Shown one piece after another: positions 17,663 through 36,337 of a stretch of 64,000 nucleotides of DNA; within the stretch, counting starts at the first letter, position 1; each line of letters starts with the position of its first letter. The stretch is from Jiangella mangrovi (GTDB lineage: Bacteria; Actinomycetota; Actinomycetes; Jiangellales; Jiangellaceae), in contig NZ_JACHMM010000001.1 in assembly GCF_014204975.1 (NCBI RefSeq), positions 5,890,037 to 5,954,036 of the forward strand. The letters are read 5' to 3'. A model generated the notes under the pieces. It did not search any database and had not been told where the DNA came from. It was given only the letters and a program-made list of their open reading frames with translations. The translations under genes were made by a program, and so were the position numbers.

Positions 17663-18610
17663 ATGCTCGAGATCGACCGGCTGTCGCGTCGCTACGGGGA
17701 CGTCGTGGCCCTCGACGACCTCTCGTTCGCGGTCCGACCAGGGCAGATGTACGGATTCGTCGGCACCAACGGGGCCGGCAAGACCACCGCGATGCGCATC
17801 GTCCTCGGCGTTCTCGAGCCCGACAGCGGCGAGGTCCGGTGGAACGGCACCCCCCTCGACCAGGACATTCGCCGCGAGTTCGGGTACATGCCCGAAGAGC
17901 GCGGTCTGTACCCGAAGATGCAGGTCCACGAGCACCTCGTGTACCTCGCGCAGCTCCACGGTGTGGCACGCATCACAGCCGGAAAGGCTGCATCGGACCT
18001 GCTCGACGCGCTCGCTCTGAGCGAACGTGCGTCGGATCGCATCGAATCGCTCTCACTCGGTAACCAGCAACGGGTCCAGCTGGCGGCCGCGCTCGTCCAC
18101 GACCCCACGGTCATGGTCCTCGACGAGCCGTTCAGCGGCCTCGACCCCATGGGCGTCGACGCCATGGCCGCCGTCCTGCGCGCCCGCGTCGACGCCGGGG
18201 CCGCCGTCGTGTTCTCCAGCCACCAGCTCGAGCTGGTCGAGCGCCTCTGCGACGCCGTCGGCATCATCCGCGCGGGGCGCATGGTCGCCGACGGCTCCGT
18301 CGACGAGCTGCGTGGCGACGCCGGCCGCCGGTACCGCCTCTCGGTCGGTGCGGCTCCCGGGTGGACGGAGTCGCTCGTCGCCGCCGTGCCCGGCCTGTCC
18401 GTGATCGACGACGGCGACCGGGTCGCCCTGGTCGAGCTGCCGCCGTCGGCCGACGACCAGACCCTGCTCGACGCCGCCCGCGCGCTCGGGCCCGTGCACC
18501 AGTTCACGCCCGAGCGGCCGACGCTGGCCGAGCTGTTCCGCTCGGTGGTCGCCGAGCCGCCCGCCGAACCCGCCGCCGTCGGCTCCGAGAAGGTCGAGGC
18601 CGCCCGATGA
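17663..18610 (+). CDS. ABC exporter ATP-binding protein (NatA-like)
   Basis: 315 residues from ATG 17663 with GAGAGGAA upstream. Walker A GTNGAGKTT, signature LSLGNQQRVQ (variant of LSGGQ), Walker B VMVLDEPFSGLDP and the switch His (SSHQ) are all present; a C-terminal DUF4162-like extension follows (about 235-305). With the overlapping permease gene (ATGA) it makes an ABC-2 exporter resembling NatAB/YhaQP, which export Na+ or other toxic compounds. Substrate not determinable. Confidence 0.9.
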   Translation: MLEIDRLSRRYGDVVALDDLSFAVRPGQMYGFVGTNGAGKTTAMRIVLGVLEPDSGEVRWNGTPLDQDIRREFGYMPEERGLYPKMQVHEHLVYLAQLHGVARITAGKAASDLLDALALSERASDRIESLSLGNQQRVQLAAALVHDPTVMVLDEPFSGLDPMGVDAMAAVLRARVDAGAAVVFSSHQLELVERLCDAVGIIRAGRMVADGSVDELRGDAGRRYRLSVGAAPGWTESLVAAVPGLSVIDDGDRVALVELPPSADDQTLLDAARALGPVHQFTPERPTLAELFRSVVAEPPAEPAAVGSEKVEAAR

Positions 18611-19815
18611 CCCGCCCCCTGTCGTTCCGCGAGGCCGTCACGCTGGTCGCGAAGCGCGAGTTCGGCCAGCGCATCCGCGAGCGCTCGTTCTTCATCTCGC
18701 TGCTCATCACCATCGGCATCATCGCCGTCGTCGTGCTGCTCCCCCGGTTCACCGACCTCGGCAACGACAGCTACGACGTCGCCCTGGTCGGCGAGGCGTC
18801 GGCGCTGCAGGAGGCGGTCGAGCGGCAGGCCGAGGTGTCCGACATCGAGGTGAGCTTCGACACGTCGGTGGGTGACGCCGCCGCGGCCGAGCAGGCGGTC
18901 CGCGACGGTGACATCGACGCCTACGTCGACGGTGACACCGTCTACGTCGACCAGTCGCTCGACAGCACGCTGCGCGCCGTCCTCGAGAACGCGTACAGCC
19001 AGGTCGAGGGGGCGCGGGCGCTGGAGTCGGCCGGCATCGACCCCGCCGAGGTGTCCGCCGCCCTGACGTCCGCGACCCTCGAGACAGTGACGCTCGACCC
19101 CGACGCCGACGAGCGCGAGACTCGCGGCGGCATCGCCTTCTTCGGGACGATCATCCTGTTCGGCCAGCTGATCACGTACTCGATGTGGGTCGCCATGGGC
19201 GTGGTCGAAGAGAAGTCCAGCCGCGTCGTCGAGGTCATCCTGTCGACCATCCCGGCCCGTGCGCTGCTGGCCGGCAAGATCATCGGTATCGGCCTGCTGG
19301 GCTTGGTGCAGCTGACGCTGATCGGCGGACTGGGGTTGGGCATCGCGGCAGCCCTGGGAGCGGTCGAGCTGACCGGCCCGATGATCTCTCCGGTCCTGAC
19401 GGCGCTCGGCTGGTTCGTGCTCGGCTTCGCCGCCTACGCCTCACTGTCCGCCGCCGCAGCCGCCCGGATCTCGCGGCAGGAGGACCTGCAGAACGTCACC
19501 ACGCCGGTGAACACGCTGATGATGGTGTCGTACTTCGGCGCGTTCTTCGTCTTCCTCAACCCCGACACCCCCGCCGCGGGGGTGCTGAGCATCGTGCCGC
19601 CCTTCAGCGCCCTGATCATGCCGCTGCGCATGGCCCGGGGCGATGCCGCCGGCTGGGAGGTCGCGCTGGCGCTGGGGCTGATGCTGGCGTTGATCGCGGT
19701 ACTGGTCGTGCTGGCGGCGCGGATCTACGAGGGCGCGGTGCTCCGGATGGGCGCCAAGGTGTCCCTGAAGGACGCCTGGGCCGCCCGCCGAAAGGTGAGC
19801 TCGTCAGGGTCCTGA
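18607..19815 (+). CDS. ABC-2 exporter permease (NatB-like)
   Basis: 402 residues. One N-terminal membrane helix (about 30-50), then a large extracytoplasmic domain (about 55-170) rich in Asp/Ala, then about five membrane helices with VVEEKSSRVVEVILSTI, the hallmark of the NatB/YhaP branch of ABC-2 permeases. It partners the preceding ATPase. The copy-A repeat begins at or within four bases of its stop codon. Confidence 0.87.
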   Translation: MTRPLSFREAVTLVAKREFGQRIRERSFFISLLITIGIIAVVVLLPRFTDLGNDSYDVALVGEASALQEAVERQAEVSDIEVSFDTSVGDAAAAEQAVRDGDIDAYVDGDTVYVDQSLDSTLRAVLENAYSQVEGARALESAGIDPAEVSAALTSATLETVTLDPDADERETRGGIAFFGTIILFGQLITYSMWVAMGVVEEKSSRVVEVILSTIPARALLAGKIIGIGLLGLVQLTLIGGLGLGIAAALGAVELTGPMISPVLTALGWFVLGFAAYASLSAAAAARISRQEDLQNVTTPVNTLMMVSYFGAFFVFLNPDTPAAGVLSIVPPFSALIMPLRMARGDAAGWEVALALGLMLALIAVLVVLAARIYEGAVLRMGAKVSLKDAWAARRKVSSSGS

Positions 19816-20019
19816 GGTGCGCCGGGGTGATGAGGTTGGCTCGCCTCGAGCCGTTCCCTCCTGGTCTGGCGTCACGTCCTGGTCCCCCGTCACGCCCGCG
19901 AGCCGAAATCGGCCGTTTCGCGTGACACCAGACCAGGACGTGACGGCAGACCACGACGTCACACCCAGGACCAAGCAGGCCGGAACCACCCACCCGTCGC
20001 CAGACTCCCCCCGTCCCCC
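19812..20019. repeat. About 210-base repeat with conserved ends and palindromic core (copy A)
   Basis: The left end CTGAGGTGCGCCGGGGTGAT..GGCTCGCCTCG (19812-19848) and right end CACCCGT.GCCAGACTCCCC..GTCCCC (19991-20019) recur at 30931-30968 and 31114-31141. The core is different: arms 19862-19883 and 19932-19953 pair over 22 bases with one mismatch, with GTCACGC/GCGTGAC (19889-19895, 19920-19926) nested inside. It fills the gap between convergent genes. Confidence 0.75.
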
Positions 20020-20023
20020 ACCG

Positions 20024-20821
20024 TCAGTCCCGATCAGCGCCCAGCCGCTCCAACAACGACGTCAGCTCAACAGCGACCCCGGGCGTCGCGGCCAGCGCCA
20101 GCTCTCCGCCCGCGGCAGCGCCGCGCAGCCCACTGACCACCGCCCCGGCCTCGGCGGCGATCAGACCGCCGGCCGCGAGGTCCCAGGGGTTCAGTCCTCG
20201 CTCGTAGTACGCGTCCAGCCGGCCGGACGCGACCGCGCACAGGTCCAGGGCCGCCGCCCCGGCCCGCCGGATGTCGCGCACCCGGGGCACGACCTCCAGC
20301 AGCACCGAAGCCTGCCGCGCCCTCCGGCCGGCGTCGTAACCGAAACCGGTCCCCACCAGCGCCAACGACAGTGACGTACACGACGACACCCGGACCGGCC
20401 GGCCGTCGAGGAAGGCGCCGCCGCCCTGCACCGCCGTCCAGAGCTCGCCGCTCGCCGGGTTCAGCACCACCCCGGCGACCACGACGCCGTCGACGGAAGC
20501 CGCGATCGACACCGCGTACTGCGGGATGCCGTACAGGTAGTTGACCGTCCCGTCGATCGGGTCGACCACCCACTCCACCCCGGAGGACCCCACGACCGAG
20601 CCGTCCTCCTCGCCCACGAACCCGTCGTCCGGGCGGGCGGCGAAGAGCCGGGAGCGGATCAGCGCCTCGGCGGCGGTGTCGGACTCCGTCACGACGTCGG
20701 TGGGCGTCGACTTGGTGCCGGCGACGGCCATGCGCTCGACGGCCTCACGCCGTTCGCGGACGAGGTCACCGGCCTCGCGGGCGGTCTTCTCGGCCAGGCC
20801 GAGCAGCTCGGCGGGCGTCAC
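20024..20821 (-). CDS. Inositol monophosphatase family protein
   Basis: 265 residues from GTG 20821, which overlaps the ferrochelatase stop (GTGA). Metal-site motifs are complete: [20 protein letters not shown] and [16 protein letters not shown]. Members dephosphorylate inositol-1-phosphate, and some act on histidinol phosphate, 3'-phosphoadenosine 5'-phosphate or fructose bisphosphate, so the substrate is not settled. In actinobacteria inositol feeds mycothiol and phosphatidylinositol. Confidence 0.9.
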
Positions 20822-30221: not shown

Positions 30222-30932
30222 ATGAGCGACGTCTCGCCGGCCGGCGAAGAGATCACCACCGGGAAGTCCGGCGCCACCGTCGTCCGCACGGCCGGCACCT
30301 ACCGCAAGGAGTCCGCCGACGACGACCTCATCGGCGAGGGCGCCCGGCTCATCTGGCTGGCCGCCCATGGCATCCCTGCCGCCGAGGTCCTCGAGTGCGG
30401 CCCCGGCCTGCTGGTGACCGCCGAGGTGCCCGGTCGCCCCGCGGCCGGCGACTGGCCGCCCGAGGCCCGCGACCGCGTCGTCGACGCCCTGGCCGAGCTG
30501 ACGCGTGCGCTGCACGCCCTGCCGGTCGGCGAGTGCCCGTTCGACCGCCGGCTCGCGGTGACGATGCCTGCGGCCTTGTCGGCCGAGGTGGACCTCGACG
30601 ACCTCGACGACGAGCGCCACGGCTGGACCCGCGACCAGCTGGTCGCCGAGCTGCTGGCCACTCGCCCGGCCTCCGAGGACCTCGTGGTCTGCCACGGCGA
30701 TCTCGGGACGCTGAACGTCATGGTCGATCCGTCGACGTTCGAGGTGACGGGGGTCGTCGACGCCGGCAGCCTGGGGGTCGCCGACCGCTGGCTCGACCTC
30801 GCCATCGCCACCCGGTCGCTCGAGGGCCGGGTCGGCGGCGATGGTGCTTCTGCGCGGTACCTGCGGTCCTATGGGGTCGAGGTCGATGCCGAAAAGCTCA
30901 CCTTCTACCGGTTGCTGGACGAGTTCTTCTGA
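30222..30932 (+). CDS. APH(3')-like aminoglycoside phosphotransferase family protein
   Basis: 236 residues, two bases after the previous stop. Nucleotide-site Lys29 (YRKES), catalytic loop VVCHGDLGTLN (Asp160, Asn165), metal-site VVDAGSLGVADRWLDLAIATRS (Asp180) and the C-terminal FYRLLDEFF closely match the APH(3') kinases that phosphorylate kanamycin-type antibiotics. It is about 25 residues shorter than clinical enzymes, mainly in the N-lobe. Being the third gene of a sigma-factor operon, it may have a housekeeping substrate. The copy-B repeat starts at its stop. Confidence 0.82.
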   Translation: MSDVSPAGEEITTGKSGATVVRTAGTYRKESADDDLIGEGARLIWLAAHGIPAAEVLECGPGLLVTAEVPGRPAAGDWPPEARDRVVDALAELTRALHALPVGECPFDRRLAVTMPAALSAEVDLDDLDDERHGWTRDQLVAELLATRPASEDLVVCHGDLGTLNVMVDPSTFEVTGVVDAGSLGVADRWLDLAIATRSLEGRVGGDGASARYLRSYGVEVDAEKLTFYRLLDEFF

Positions 30933-31141
30933 GGTTCTGCCGGGGTGATGAGGTGGGCTCGCCTCGCCGTCATCTACCGGTCCGTCGTGGGCGAGTTACT
31001 ACCGCTATAGCAGTTGTCACTCGCCCACGGCGCGCGTCAGGAGGGAGTTCTCCCCGCTATAGCGAGGAAAAGTCCCTCCCGACACCACCACGGCCGACTT
31101 CACTACGACCCCGCACCCGTGGCCAGACTCCCCCGTCCCCC
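30931..31141. repeat. About 210-base repeat with conserved ends and palindromic core (copy B)
   Basis: It has the same left (30931-30968) and right (31114-31141) ends as the copy at 19812-20019, but an unrelated core. The core has two palindromes: 30987-31028 (42 bases, arms GTGGGCGAGT/ACTCGCCCAC) and 31040-31079 (40 bases, arms GGAGGGA/TCCCTCC). Both are centred on GCTATAGC. Confidence 0.75.
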
Positions 31142-31156
31142 TCATAGCTGCCAGTT

Positions 31157-31252
31157 CTTAGGCCGCGCGGGTGCGGTCAAGTCCAAGCGCCCCCACCACA
31201 GTCCCGCGCAAGCACAGAGCGCGCGGACTTGAGGGCACCCGCGCGGCTTAAG
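31157..31252. repeat. Large imperfect inverted repeat before tdk
   Basis: Arms 31157-31190 and 31219-31252 pair over 34 bases with five mismatches (shared core GCCGCGCGGGTGC and CTCAAGTCC-type ends). Pairing appears to continue outward: GTCCCCCT..GCTGCC on the left matches GGCAGCAGGGGGAC on the right, up to the tdk stop. It lies in the convergent gap between the phosphotransferase gene and tdk. Confidence 0.7.
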
Positions 31253-31289
31253 AGAATCGGCAGCAGGGGGACGGGGGGGGAACCCAACC

Positions 31290-31937
31290 TCAGCCGGCGG
31301 CGAAGGGCAGGGGCTCGGCGCCGGCCTCGGCGACCCGGGCGCTGACGGCGGTCATGCGGCGCCGGTGGTGGTGGCGGCAGAGCACCTCGTAACCGACCAC
31401 GCCGGCGCCGTCGGTGTCGCCGACGACGACCTGCTCGCCCTCGGTGACCATGATGCCGCCGACGGTGCGGGCGTTGTGGGTCGCGCGCCGGCCGCACCAG
31501 CACAGCGCCTCGACCTGCAGGGTCTCGACGCGGTCGGCCAGTTCGACCAACCGAGCGGACCCGGGGAACAGCCGGGTGCGGAAGTCGGTGAGGATGCCGA
31601 ACGCGTACACCGGGACGTCGAGTTCGTCGGCCACCCGGCCGAGGTCGTCGACCTGCTCCGACGTGTAGAACTGGGCCTCGTCGCCGATGACGTAGTCGAT
31701 GCGCTCCCCCGCCGCCAGCCGGGCCGCCACCACCGACCACAGCTGCGTCGACGGCGACACCTCGACGGCGTCGGCGGACAGGCCGAGGCGGCTGGACACC
31801 GTCGCCTCGCCGGCGCGGTCGTGCGAGGTCAGCATGAGCCCGGACAGCCCGCGACGGCGGTGGTTGTAGTCGGTCTGCAGGGCCAGCGTGGACTTGCCGC
31901 AGTCCATGGTCCCCGTGAAGAAGTGCAGCTCAGCCAA
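31290..31937 (-). CDS. tdk: Thymidine kinase
   Basis: 215 residues from TTG 31937 (GAGG about ten bases upstream). It phosphorylates thymidine in the salvage pathway. TK1-type features: P-loop FFTGTMDCGKST, YVIGDEAQFY with the DEAQ Walker-B-like motif, lid region VPVYAFGILTDFRTRLFPGS, and a zinc ribbon CWCGRRATHNAR..CRHHH with one cysteine position supplied by a nearby residue. It follows the pyrophosphatase gene with six bases of overlap-free spacing. Confidence 0.93.
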   Translation of the reverse strand: MAELHFFTGTMDCGKSTLALQTDYNHRRRGLSGLMLTSHDRAGEATVSSRLGLSADAVEVSPSTQLWSVVAARLAAGERIDYVIGDEAQFYTSEQVDDLGRVADELDVPVYAFGILTDFRTRLFPGSARLVELADRVETLQVEALCWCGRRATHNARTVGGIMVTEGEQVVVGDTDGAGVVGYEVLCRHHHRRRMTAVSARVAEAGAEPLPFAAG

Positions 31938-33052: not shown

Positions 33053-33634
33053 TCACCGCACGCTGATGGTGGCGGCGGACAGGGCCCGGGCGAAGGTCAG
33101 GAGGTCGCGGACCCGGCCGCTGCCGTCGCCGGCCTCGCTGACCCGCAGCGTGAAGTCGTCGGAGGTCAGGGCGCCGGTGTAGCCGTGGTCGGCCTCGCAG
33201 TCGGGGTCGCCACACGTGGCCGGCTCGAGGTCGATGCGGCTCATGGCGCCCCAGCCGACGGTGAGGACGACGTCGAGCGCGGGCGTGCCCGTGCGGTACG
33301 CGGCCGGCGACGTGACCGTGCGGCTCACGACCACCGACGTGACGCGGTCGAGCGGCACCGCCTCGGTGGACGTGGTGGCGTACGGCACGTCGTGGGTGTC
33401 GTCGGAGGGGTACTCGTCGGTATGGCCGACGATGAGCCTCGTGGGGGTGAGGACCAGCACGCTCACGTGCCGTCGCAGTTCGTCGCGGTCGAAGTGCGGC
33501 TCGTGGTGCACCACGTAGGAGTCGACCGCCTCGCCGGCCAGCGAGGTCTCGAGCATGTCCGCGACGAGGTCCGGGTAGTACCCGGCCTCCTGGATGGCCA
33601 GGCGAAGGCCCTCACGCGTCCCTGTGTCCGCCAT
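33053..33634 (-). CDS. DUF5998 family protein
   Basis: 193 residues. No catalytic motif was recognised. It contains YYPDLVADMLETSLAGE, HHEPHFDRDELRRHVSVLVLTPTRLIVGHTDE (a PH-like or beta-rich region) and a CGDPDCEADHGYTG cysteine/histidine segment that could bind metal. Actinobacterial DUF5998 proteins are usually found beside the same phosphodiesterase gene, as here. Function is unknown. Confidence 0.68.
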   Translation of the reverse strand: MADTGTREGLRLAIQEAGYYPDLVADMLETSLAGEAVDSYVVHHEPHFDRDELRRHVSVLVLTPTRLIVGHTDEYPSDDTHDVPYATTSTEAVPLDRVTSVVVSRTVTSPAAYRTGTPALDVVLTVGWGAMSRIDLEPATCGDPDCEADHGYTGALTSDDFTLRVSEAGDGSGRVRDLLTFARALSAATISVR

Positions 33635-33667
33635 TCCTCCATCCTCGCACGCTCGTGGTGCCTAGCG

Positions 33668-36337
33668 TCACGGCAGGCGCCGGGTATACCAGTCCTGTCG
33701 TCCGGCCGGCGCCGCCACCCTGGCCGAACCGTTGACGACGGCCACCCCCGACTCGCCGGCGAGCACCGGGTCGAGCTCGACGGAGCGGATCTCCGGTACG
33801 TCGTCGACCAGCCGCGACATGCGGTGGACCAGGTCTTCGACGGCCCCCAGGTCGGCCATGATGCCACCCTGGTAGCCCATGAGTAAGGCGGCCGCCTTCA
33901 CCTCGCGCACCATCTCCGCGGCGTCGCGGTCGGTCAGCGGCGGGATGCGGTACGAGCGGTCCCCCAGCAGCTCCGACGCCACTCCCGACACGCCGAACGA
34001 CACCACCGGGCCGAACAGGGGGTCCTCCCAGGCGCGGACGGCGACCGGCACGCCGCCGGGGGCCATGGGCTGCACGACGAAGCCGGCCTCGGCGGGGTCG
34101 GTGAGCGTGCGCGTCATGGTGGTCCAGGCGTCGCGCATCTCCCACTGGGTGTCGATGTGGCGCCAGACGGCCGCGAGGTCGGGACGGTGCCGCAGCCGCG
34201 GCGACGTCGCCTTGAGGACCACCTCGCCGCCCAGCTCGTCCAGCGCCGCCAGCGCGGCGTCGACCGTCGCCACCGGGATCATCGGCAGGAGGTCGACCCC
34301 GTAGGCGGCCAGCAGCTCGCGCAGTTCTCCAGGTCCGAGCTCGACTCCGTCGGGCCTCGACTCCCCCGGTGCACCGGCAGGCGACGCCGTCGTGCTCAGC
34401 ACCCGCCGCACCAGCTTCCCGGCCGCCGCGGGATCGCGGCCCTCGAGCCGCGGCACCCGGCCGTGGCTGCGCCGTCGCCACTCCGCGTACGCGGTGGCGT
34501 GGCCGAGCGCCCGGGCGGCTTCTTCGGGCGACGGGTACGACGGCACCGCCCCCGGCCCGCGGACGCCCCGTCGGCCCTGGAACGTCGTGACGACGGGCTT
34601 GCCCGCCGCGGCCGCCACCTCCTCCAGCGCCCCCGCGACGTCGTCGTCGCCGGGCGCATCGACGGCCGGGGCGTAGACGACCAGGACGGAGCTGACGGCG
34701 GGCTCGTCGACGAACGCCCGCAGCGCCTTGCGGTAGTCGTCGGCCGTCGCCCCGGCCCCGAAGCCGACGGGATCGCCGTAGACGTCCAGGCCGGCGCTGA
34801 CGGCGGCGTCGGCGGCCAGCAGGCACAGCGCCCCGGAGTTGCCCATGACGGCGACCGTGCGGCCCCTGGGCAGCGGCTGGTACGCCAGCAGCTGGGCGAC
34901 GTCGAACATCTCGGGGATGGTGTCGACCAGGATGACGCCGGACTGGCGGAACATGGCGTCCAGCGCATCGGCGGGCGCCTCGATGGCCCGGACGGTGTGC
35001 CCCAGCGGCACGCCCTGGGTCGACCGGCCGCTCTTCACCGCGACGACGGGCTTGACCTCGGCCACGGCGCGCGAGAGCCGCGAGAACTTGCGCGGGTTGC
35101 CCAGCGACTCGAGGTACAGCAGCACCACCTCGGTGGCGGGGTCGTCGCGCCAGTACTGCAGCAGGTCGTTGCCGGACACGTCGGCGCGGTTGCCGGCCGA
35201 CACGAACGTCGACACGCCCAGGCCGCGGGCGGCGCCGTCGCCCAGGATGGCCGAGCCCAGGGCGCCGGACTGAGCGAAGAACCCGACCCGCCCGGCCGGA
35301 GGCAACGTGGTGGCCAGCGACGCGTTCAGCGAGTAGGCGGGGTCGGTGTTGACGATGCCCAGGCAGTTCGGCCCGACGATGCGCATGCCGTGCGCCCGCG
35401 CGAGGCGCACCAGCTCGGCCTGCCGGGACCGCCCGACCGGCTCGCCCGTCTCGGCGAACCCCGACGACACGACGACCAGCCCGCGCACGCCCTTGGCGGC
35501 GCAGTCGAGGACGACCTCGGCGACGGCGTCGGCCGGGACGGCGACCAGCGCGAGGTCGACCTCGCCGGGGACGTCGCGGACGCTCTTGTAGGCCGGCAGC
35601 CCGGTGATGGCCGTCGCCTCGCGGTTGACGGCGTAGACCGGGCCGGTGAACCCGCCGAGCACGAGGTTGCGCACCAGCGTCTGGCCGATCTTCTCGCGCC
35701 ATCGACTGGCACCGATGACCGCGACCGACCGCGGGGTCAGCAGCCGCTCGATGGAGCGCGCCTCGGCCCGGTGCTCGCGGGCGGCCATGACCTCGAGCGA
35801 GCTGCCGGTGGGCGCGATCTCGAACTCGACGTGGACGACGCCGTCCTCGTAGCGGTTGTCGACGGTGTAGCCGGCGTCGGCGAAGACGTCGATCATCTTG
35901 TGGTTCGCGGGCAGGATGTCGGCGACGAACCGGCGCACGCCGCGCTCGCGGGCCGCCTGGGCCAGGTGCTCGAGCAGCACGCTGCCCACGCCGCGGCCCT
36001 GGTGCTCGTCCTCGACCAGGAACGACACCTCGGCGTCGGCGCGGCTGAGCCGCTCGTACCGGCCGACGGCGATCATGTCGTTGCCGACCAGCAGGATCAG
36101 CGCGACCCGGTCGCTGTGATCGACGTTCGTGAATCTCTCGACGTCGCGGCTGGTCAGCGTCGGGTAGGGGGCGAAGAAGCGGTAGTACTTCGACCGGTCG
36201 CTCACGCGCGCGTAGAACTGGACGAGGCGGTCGGCGTCGGCCGCGGCGATGGGCCGCAGGTGCGCCGTGGCACCGTCGGACAGCACGACATCGGCCTCCC
36301 AGTGCGCCGGATAGACCGCCGTCTCGTCCACGGTCAC
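33668..36337 (-). CDS. GNAT acetyltransferase fused to NDP-forming acyl-CoA synthetase
   Basis: 889 residues from GTG 36337. Residues 20-180 form a GNAT domain (VEDEHQGRGVGSVLLEHL acetyl-CoA loop). Residues 195-620 are CoA-binding and succinyl-CoA-synthetase-like domains (SVAVIGASR, GPNCLGIVNTD, AQSGALGSAIL, phospho-His candidate in GHTVRAIEAPADAL). Residues 670-885 form an ATP-grasp domain. This order is typical of Pat-like protein lysine acetyltransferases of actinobacteria and proteobacteria. It links acyl-CoA level to protein acetylation. Divergent from the Gfo/Idh gene. Confidence 0.9.
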   Translation of the reverse strand: MTVDETAVYPAHWEADVVLSDGATAHLRPIAAADADRLVQFYARVSDRSKYYRFFAPYPTLTSRDVERFTNVDHSDRVALILLVGNDMIAVGRYERLSRADAEVSFLVEDEHQGRGVGSVLLEHLAQAARERGVRRFVADILPANHKMIDVFADAGYTVDNRYEDGVVHVEFEIAPTGSSLEVMAAREHRAEARSIERLLTPRSVAVIGASRWREKIGQTLVRNLVLGGFTGPVYAVNREATAITGLPAYKSVRDVPGEVDLALVAVPADAVAEVVLDCAAKGVRGLVVVSSGFAETGEPVGRSRQAELVRLARAHGMRIVGPNCLGIVNTDPAYSLNASLATTLPPAGRVGFFAQSGALGSAILGDGAARGLGVSTFVSAGNRADVSGNDLLQYWRDDPATEVVLLYLESLGNPRKFSRLSRAVAEVKPVVAVKSGRSTQGVPLGHTVRAIEAPADALDAMFRQSGVILVDTIPEMFDVAQLLAYQPLPRGRTVAVMGNSGALCLLAADAAVSAGLDVYGDPVGFGAGATADDYRKALRAFVDEPAVSSVLVVYAPAVDAPGDDDVAGALEEVAAAAGKPVVTTFQGRRGVRGPGAVPSYPSPEEAARALGHATAYAEWRRRSHGRVPRLEGRDPAAAGKLVRRVLSTTASPAGAPGESRPDGVELGPGELRELLAAYGVDLLPMIPVATVDAALAALDELGGEVVLKATSPRLRHRPDLAAVWRHIDTQWEMRDAWTTMTRTLTDPAEAGFVVQPMAPGGVPVAVRAWEDPLFGPVVSFGVSGVASELLGDRSYRIPPLTDRDAAEMVREVKAAALLMGYQGGIMADLGAVEDLVHRMSRLVDDVPEIRSVELDPVLAGESGVAVVNGSARVAAPAGRQDWYTRRLP

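What the first reader, a model, noticed from the sequence alone, without database searches (positions are those of the whole stretch)
19812..20019. 210-base repeat family with conserved ends and exchangeable palindromic cores
Copy A (19812-20019) and copy B (30931-31141) share about 35-base left ends and 28-base right ends, have nearly equal length, and both begin at or within four bases of a stop codon of a plus-strand gene before a convergent gap. Their interiors are unrelated but both strongly dyad-symmetric. A cassette with fixed termini and variable palindromic cargo does not match ordinary REP, IS or CRISPR units; it may be a small mobile element, or conserved ends recombining around terminator-like hairpins.
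Basis: seen in the sequence. Interest (0 to 1): 0.66.

Follow-up and report, generated by a model that had tools for sequence, protein, structure and literature searches.

The report
Mosaic hairpin repeat in Jiangella genomes
The two repeats are shortened copies of a previously undescribed, roughly 600-base chain of DNA hairpins that sits in many dozens of places between the ends of facing genes in one actinobacterial genus, has come and gone between species, and in this genome nearly always points toward the replication origin.

Summary
Copies A and B belong to a genome-wide family found in 11 of 12 Jiangella species examined and not detected in 87 other relatives, plasmids or phages. Complete elements are about 550-730 bp. 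Their modules keep a fixed order: L, M1, (M2 or A), M3, M4, M5, N, R, M6. M1 and M6 are inverted copies of one ~135-nt bulged hairpin, and every inner module is a palindrome. Copy A keeps L, the A module and R; copy B keeps L, M3, M4, R and M6. The "exchangeable cores" are therefore different subsets of one ordered series, with A and M2 as true alternatives. Elements favour convergent gaps (16 of 131, against 7 of 586 other gaps), and orthologous gaps in sister species are empty or filled differently. Folding signals (G-T far above A-C mismatches) favour one strand of most inner hairpins. In the window's genome L-to-R points to oriC (R ends 42 of 43; Fisher p = 2e-9), with flips at dnaA and a candidate dif. 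Best reading: a non-autonomous, BOX/BIME-like mosaic mobile element acting as folded single strand. No transposase, Y1/RAYT gene or target duplication was found; the mobilising enzyme is unknown.

The parts
19813..20019 (+). Copy A as a whole: L end, A-type palindromic core, N remnant, R end; lacks M1, M2, M3, M4, M6
   Evidence: genome 5909850-5910055: L A R
19814..19848 (+). Copy A left end (L), beginning within the TGA stop of the ABC-2 permease gene
   Evidence: 0 mismatches to the L pattern
19859..19958 (+). Copy A core: 100-nt A-type palindrome (about 23 copies in the genome); the minus strand folds better in all 23
   Evidence: (I12)
19960..19983 (+). Remnant of N module (CACACCCAGGACCAAGCAGG)
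19985..20019 (+). Copy A right end (R); exact match to the genome-wide 23-mer
30931..31289 (+). Copy B as a whole: L, M3, M4, M5 trace, R, M6 and tail; fills the whole gap between the two stop codons
30931..30964 (+). Copy B left end (L), overlapping the TGA stop of the APH-family gene
30984..31031 (+). Module M3, palindrome with CTATAG centre
31035..31083 (+). Module M4, palindrome with CTATAG centre; folds better on the minus strand in 27 of 29 copies
31096..31109 (+). Trace of module M5 (CGACTTCACTACGAC)
   Evidence: by eye; below the cut-off used for module calls
31110..31141 (+). Copy B right end (R)
31132..31275 (+).
18607..19815 (+). Left neighbour of copy A: ABC-2 transporter permease (PF12698)
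20024..20821 (-). Right neighbour of copy A: inositol monophosphatase family (PF00459)
30222..30932 (+). Left neighbour of copy B: phosphotransferase family (PF01636)
31290..31937 (-). Right neighbour of copy B: thymidine kinase family (PF00265)

Best explanation
These are two internally shortened copies of a Jiangella-specific, non-autonomous mosaic mobile element. The complete form is an ordered chain of hairpins closed at both ends by inverted copies of one ~135-nt bulged hairpin. It has spread to roughly 100-200 sites per genome and persists mainly between facing gene ends, where insertion harms least. Copies then lose or swap whole palindromic modules in place. Inferred: what is recognised and selected is the single-stranded folded form, moved in trans by an enzyme not yet identified. 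In this genome the strand with most well-folding inner hairpins is the lagging-strand template. That fits capture, insertion or excision at the replication fork, as IS200/IS605 elements do it, but without their Y1 transposase. A secondary role as transcript 3'-end hairpins is possible.
For: Shown: a family of at least 80 module clusters with strict collinearity. Shown: 78 terminal-arm sites against 6 reversed-control hits. Shown: genus-restricted, 11 of 12 genomes of the genus counting the window's own and 0 of 87 other relatives, with Jiangella titles and none in plasmids or phages. Shown: orthologous gaps of 1-18 nt in some species hold 357-1153 nt of element modules in others, and a clean ~600-nt gain lies in an otherwise conserved ~495-nt gap of J. 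rhizosphaerae. Shown: convergent-gap enrichment, 16/131 against 7/586, p = 5e-8. Shown: G-T far above A-C in the terminal hairpin, 182:31, and 34:5 for pairs found on both strands; M3, M4, M5 and A fold better on the minus strand. Shown: polarity of R ends 31/1 against 0/11, p = 2e-9, and of all clusters 52/7 against 4/17, p = 1e-8, relative to dnaA and a unique dif-like site. Inferred: in five tandem gaps whose genes run against the fork, the element still points to oriC.
Against: No transposase belongs to the element; genes inside three long copies are IS256, IS110 and IS4/5-type insertions. No target-site duplication was recognised at the one clean insertion. No Y1_Tnp gene in any of 12 genomes. 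Polarity is weak in other species: neighbour concordance 46 of 73, p = 0.02, and no clear pattern in G008. Copies are related, so G-T/A-C and strand-fold counts are not independent. M2 shows no strand preference, type-2 terminal hairpins little, and M6 folds best on the opposite strand. Presence/absence could partly reflect loss.
Confidence: 0.62

Rival explanations
1. The elements are 3'-UTR RNA devices: hairpins that end or protect transcripts of both converging genes. They are kept by selection and oriented so that the better-folding strand is transcribed with the leading-strand gene.
For: Convergent-gap enrichment, stable folds on both strands, G-U tolerance and compensatory changes. The better-folding strand is also the RNA sense of leading-strand genes.
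Against: No T-run terminator is found in either copy. Most convergent gaps (115 of 131) have none, and orthologous gaps of 1-18 nt do without it. Five elements flanked by genes running against the fork keep the replication polarity.
Confidence: 0.2
2. A classical MITE: a defective DDE transposon whose terminal inverted repeats (M1/M6 arms) are recognised by a transposase of a resident IS.
For: Long terminal inverted repeats around the element; many IS in the genome, including DDE and Mutator types inside copies.
Against: No full-length parent with the same ends was found among M1-M6 pairs; long pairs are ordinary elements interrupted by IS. No target duplication seen. A classical MITE does not predict strand-specific folding or replication polarity.
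Confidence: 0.12
3. A static ancestral intergenic feature passed down vertically, with apparent mobility being only repeated deletion of hairpin modules.
For: Module loss is rampant, and long palindromes are deletion-prone (general knowledge).
Against: The clean gain in gap 14 of J. rhizosphaerae interrupts a gap of similar length in eight other species. The family is absent outside the genus yet has many copies inside it. Copies lie at unrelated gene pairs.
Confidence: 0.05

Closest known systems
BOX elements of Streptococcus pneumoniae and BOX-type repeats of S. suis (PMC3049150)
   Same: Composite repeat with conserved end modules and optional inner modules; stem-loops if transcribed; over-represented between convergent genes; proposed to be moved in trans; S. 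suis boxE/boxF ends of 115/133 nt are like the 135-nt hairpin here.
   Different: Different phylum; every inner module is itself a palindrome; end modules are inverted copies of each other; A and M2 are mutually exclusive; strong replication polarity, against about 60% leading-strand in pneumococcus.
REP / BIME / REPIN families (PMC2817692, PMC3116915, PMC3733652)
   Same: Many-copy extragenic palindromes in mosaic arrays at gene 3' ends; targets for IS insertion (PMC1525189).
   Different: Units here have much longer stems (100-147 nt terminal and A units), no GTAG-tagged short REP, no RAYT in the genus, fixed module order.
IS200/IS605 elements (PMC6006769)
   Same: Hairpin ends acting as ssDNA and bias toward the lagging-strand template are the model that best fits the polarity.
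   Different: No Y1 transposase gene in or near the element or in the genus; both ends carry the hairpin in inverted arrangement.
Correia/NEMIS and other bacterial MITEs (described in PMC3049150)
   Same: Short non-autonomous repeats with terminal inverted repeats and strong folding, inserted near genes.
   Different: Larger, modular, without a recognised target duplication or matching transposase.

Membership tests
BOX-type mosaic elements | Fixed end modules with a variable set of inner modules | tested here: met
   80 clusters, collinear order
BOX-type mosaic elements | Sequence relationship to boxA/B/C | not tested
   Not compared by sequence; different phylum and composition. Only the architecture is claimed as similar
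BOX-type mosaic elements | Enriched between convergent genes | tested here: met
   16/131 against 7/586
REP / BIME | Short (20-40 bp) palindromes with GTAG or CGTC tag | tested here: not met
   Units are 48-147 nt. M3/M4 begin CGTC-like but stems are about twice the 8-9 bp of CGTC repeats in PMC3733652
REP / BIME | Associated RAYT (Y1_Tnp, PF01797) | tested here: not met
   0 of 12 genus genomes; the control search rings in 5 of 14 named genomes
MITE | Terminal inverted repeats | tested here: met
   M1 and M6 are inverted relatives at the two ends
MITE | Target-site duplication | tested here: inconclusive
   None recognised at one clean insertion and two polymorphic gaps; flanks too short or diverged
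MITE | Parent transposon with the same ends | tested here: inconclusive
   Long copies hold unrelated IS only; not all genomes surveyed
IS200/IS605-like single-strand element | Y1 HUH transposase | tested here: not met
IS200/IS605-like single-strand element | Orientation tied to replication direction | tested here: met
   Strong in the window's genome, weak in others
Described RNA families (Rfam 15) | Match to a covariance model | tested here: not met
   No match at gathering score; only sub-threshold microRNA and VA RNA hits
Intrinsic terminator | Hairpin followed by a T-run | tested here: not met

The most novel reading that the evidence does not exclude
A mosaic element that lives as single-stranded DNA at the replication fork: both strands end 3' in the same bulged hairpin, insertion is into the lagging-strand template (hence pointing to oriC), and an as yet unknown, non-Y1 enzyme of Jiangella moves it.
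Probability: 0.2. Interest if true: 0.75.

Novelty: new variant of a known kind. Interest (0 to 1): 0.5.

Why it matters
It adds an apparently undescribed, large modular repeat family in actinobacteria (no paper on it was found in the held library), with enough copies and sister genomes to watch module loss and exchange. The near-complete polarity toward oriC, together with strand-specific folding and the absence of a Y1 transposase, makes a concrete question testable: how do non-coding repeats become oriented with replication, by insertion at the fork or by selection on RNA? If the enzyme were found it could be a new kind of single-strand DNA mobiliser.

Tried and rejected
RAYT/Y1 hypothesis: no PF01797 in the genus. 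Rfam: no real match. Intrinsic terminators and sigma-70 promoters in the copies: none. Autonomous parent: the 2-3 kb M1-M6 pairs turned out to be IS256, IS110 or IS4/5-type insertions inside ordinary copies. Plasmid or phage origin: no match. Replichore polarity was first doubted because GC skew was noisy; a unique dif-like site at 3.954 Mb then placed the second flip. Membership in the CGTC-tagged REP super-family was considered for M3/M4 and rejected on stem length.

Full report
CHECK OF THE OBSERVATION. The window is part of a 7.16-Mb single-contig genome. Searching that genome with copy A gives 80 matches and with copy B 94. The right-end 23-mer occurs 39 times at up to 3 mismatches, 28 of them exact, and the left-end 26-mer 17 times; the same patterns read backwards occur 0 times. 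The arm GGGCAGCAGGGGGACGGG of the outer hairpins occurs 78 times against 6 in the control. The interiors fold far better than shuffles on both strands (z -4.8 to -8.1). So the ends, the equal context (convergent gap, start at the stop codon) and the dyad symmetry are real.

ANATOMY. Printing and aligning the gaps and mapping module references on about 1.1 Mb of this genome shows one ordered plan. L (GAGGTTCTGCCGGGGTGATGAGGTGGGCTC) is followed by M1 (135-nt hairpin), a flank (GACCCTGGGCACGCCTCGCC), then M2 or A, then M3, M4, M5, N, R (CCACCCGTCGCCAGACTCCCCCCGTCCCCC), M6 (the M1 hairpin inverted) and a short tail to the opposite stop codon. In 80 clusters the order is kept, and only three inner modules are inverted (at 4.17, 4.47 and 5.40 Mb). 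Copies lack different modules. Copy A is L-A-R; copy B is L-M3-M4-R-M6; a full copy such as 4386691-4387318 is L-M1-M2-M3-M4-R-M6. A and M2 exclude each other (1 joint, 22 A only, 37 M2 only, 20 neither; Fisher p = 3e-7). Copy B also continues to 31289: its right end is the arm of M6.

THE TERMINAL HAIRPIN. 218 distinct copies from this and sister genomes share a bulged hairpin. Its outer arms are CCCCGTCCCCCTGATAGCTGCC and GGGCAGCAGGGGGACGGG with an extra ATAG on the 5' side. Next come an internal loop around TTCTTAG/CTAAGA, a freely changing but still pairing stem, and two kinds of apex; type 1 ends in GGCGCGAAGCGCC. Stem pairs change on both sides (for example CG 57 / GC 53 at one pair). 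On the strand written here G-T mismatches exceed A-C 182 to 31, and 34 to 5 when only pairs found for both strands are counted. In 122 of 133 type-1 copies that strand folds better. In M3, M4, M5 and A the opposite (R-to-L, minus) strand folds better (14/15, 27/29, 17/19, 23/23); M2 shows no preference. Copies are related, so these counts overstate independence, but the direction is consistent with a folded single strand, DNA or RNA, being what matters.

DISTRIBUTION AND TURNOVER. In 99 genomes searched (the window's own and 98 relatives) only members of the same genus match: 11 of 12, counting the window's own, with G002 lacking it. The 20-mer CCGTCCCCCTGATAGCTGCC returns Jiangella species in the GTDB set, plus single hits in one Kribbella and one planctomycete bin that look like chance. 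Plasmids and phages have none. At the copy B locus, G001, G008 and G009 have 1, 4 and 7 nt between the stop codons, whereas G000, G011 and G007 have 357, 600 and 498 nt of element modules. At the copy A locus the gap is 18 and 13 nt in G003 and G009, 600 nt (full element) in G001, 1153 nt in G007, and only an M2 remnant in G002, G005 and G006. No target duplication could be recognised. In a sample of 864 kb the element is in 16 of 131 convergent, 2 of 127 divergent and 5 of 459 tandem gaps (convergent against the rest p = 5e-8). Extrapolation gives very roughly 100-200 copies; some sampled stretches had been chosen near known copies, so this is an upper-leaning guess. Because facing genes here lie only about 34 nt apart (median), an element between them necessarily starts near a stop codon, which explains that detail without special targeting.

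POLARITY. dnaA is at 1.925 Mb. A single dif-like site is at 3.954 Mb (consensus recalled from memory, 3 mismatches). R ends are + 31 times and - once in the arm from dif through 0 to dnaA, and + 0 and - 11 times in the other arm (Fisher p = 2e-9). All module clusters give 52/7 and 4/17 (p = 1e-8). L-to-R therefore points to oriC, and the minus strand is the lagging-strand template, which is also the RNA sense of leading-strand genes. In five tandem gaps with genes running against the fork (at 39 kb and 2.93, 6.64, 6.93 and 7.12 Mb) the element still points to oriC, which mildly favours replication over transcription as the cause. In sister species the effect is weak: neighbouring copies agree in 46 of 73 cases (p = 0.02; counted by hand, computed), and G008 shows no pattern. 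The gene calls behind these counts come from a simple codon-usage script.

MECHANISM. Best supported is a non-autonomous mosaic element, spread in trans and eroded by loss of hairpin modules. Shown: family, order, turnover, context, polarity, strand-biased folding. Inferred: that a single-stranded form is bound by a mobilising enzyme, and that the fork supplies it. Not shown: the enzyme. Y1/RAYT genes are absent from all 12 genomes. IS inside copies are passengers: the same IS110 sits at the same site of M5 (CTAG/CCAGAACC) in two copies, as REP elements are known IS targets (PMC1525189).

COMPARISON. Architecture and genomic context are closest to BOX elements (PMC3049150), function-by-analogy to REP/BIME, and polarity to IS200/IS605 (PMC6006769). 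Membership in REP/BIME and IS200/IS605 fails on tested features; membership in BOX by sequence was not tested. I file it as a new variant of the mosaic-repeat kind.

Noticed in passing
G000 3125201-3126424 and 530943-532166 (L109, L383): The same IS110-family element is inserted at the same position of module M5 (CTAG/CCAGAACC) in two different copies, suggesting that the palindrome is its programmed target.
   Followed up: partly
window 33634-33668 and its orthologues in G004 and G008: G004 and G008 carry a further ~127-nt insert with ends GGTCATGCAA/TTGCATGACC in a tandem gap that is 32-33 nt in most species: another small inverted-repeat element.
   Followed up: no
orthologues of gap 19816-20023 in G010, G008, G009: A different short hairpin (ATGATCATCAATGATCC...GGATCATTGATGATCAT) fills or borders the copy A gap; the GATGATCATC motif recurs inside M2.
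   Followed up: no
genome: dnaA 1.925 Mb, dif-like site 3.954 Mb: If the dif-like site is right, the replication arms are very unequal (about 2.0 and 5.1 Mb).
   Followed up: partly
L174 (G007), copy A orthologue, 1153-nt gap: In this species the element is expanded by internal tandem repeats (GGACCGTCCCCGA..., CCGGTCCGGCGTGAACGGTCGCC...).
   Followed up: no
orthologues of gap 30933-31289 in G003 and G006: The copy B gap holds unrelated palindromic fillers in other species (81-nt TTGGCAGTTT...AACTGCCAA hairpin; 292-nt repeats with CGGCGGATACTCGGGAAACC), so this convergent gap is repeatedly colonised.
   Followed up: no
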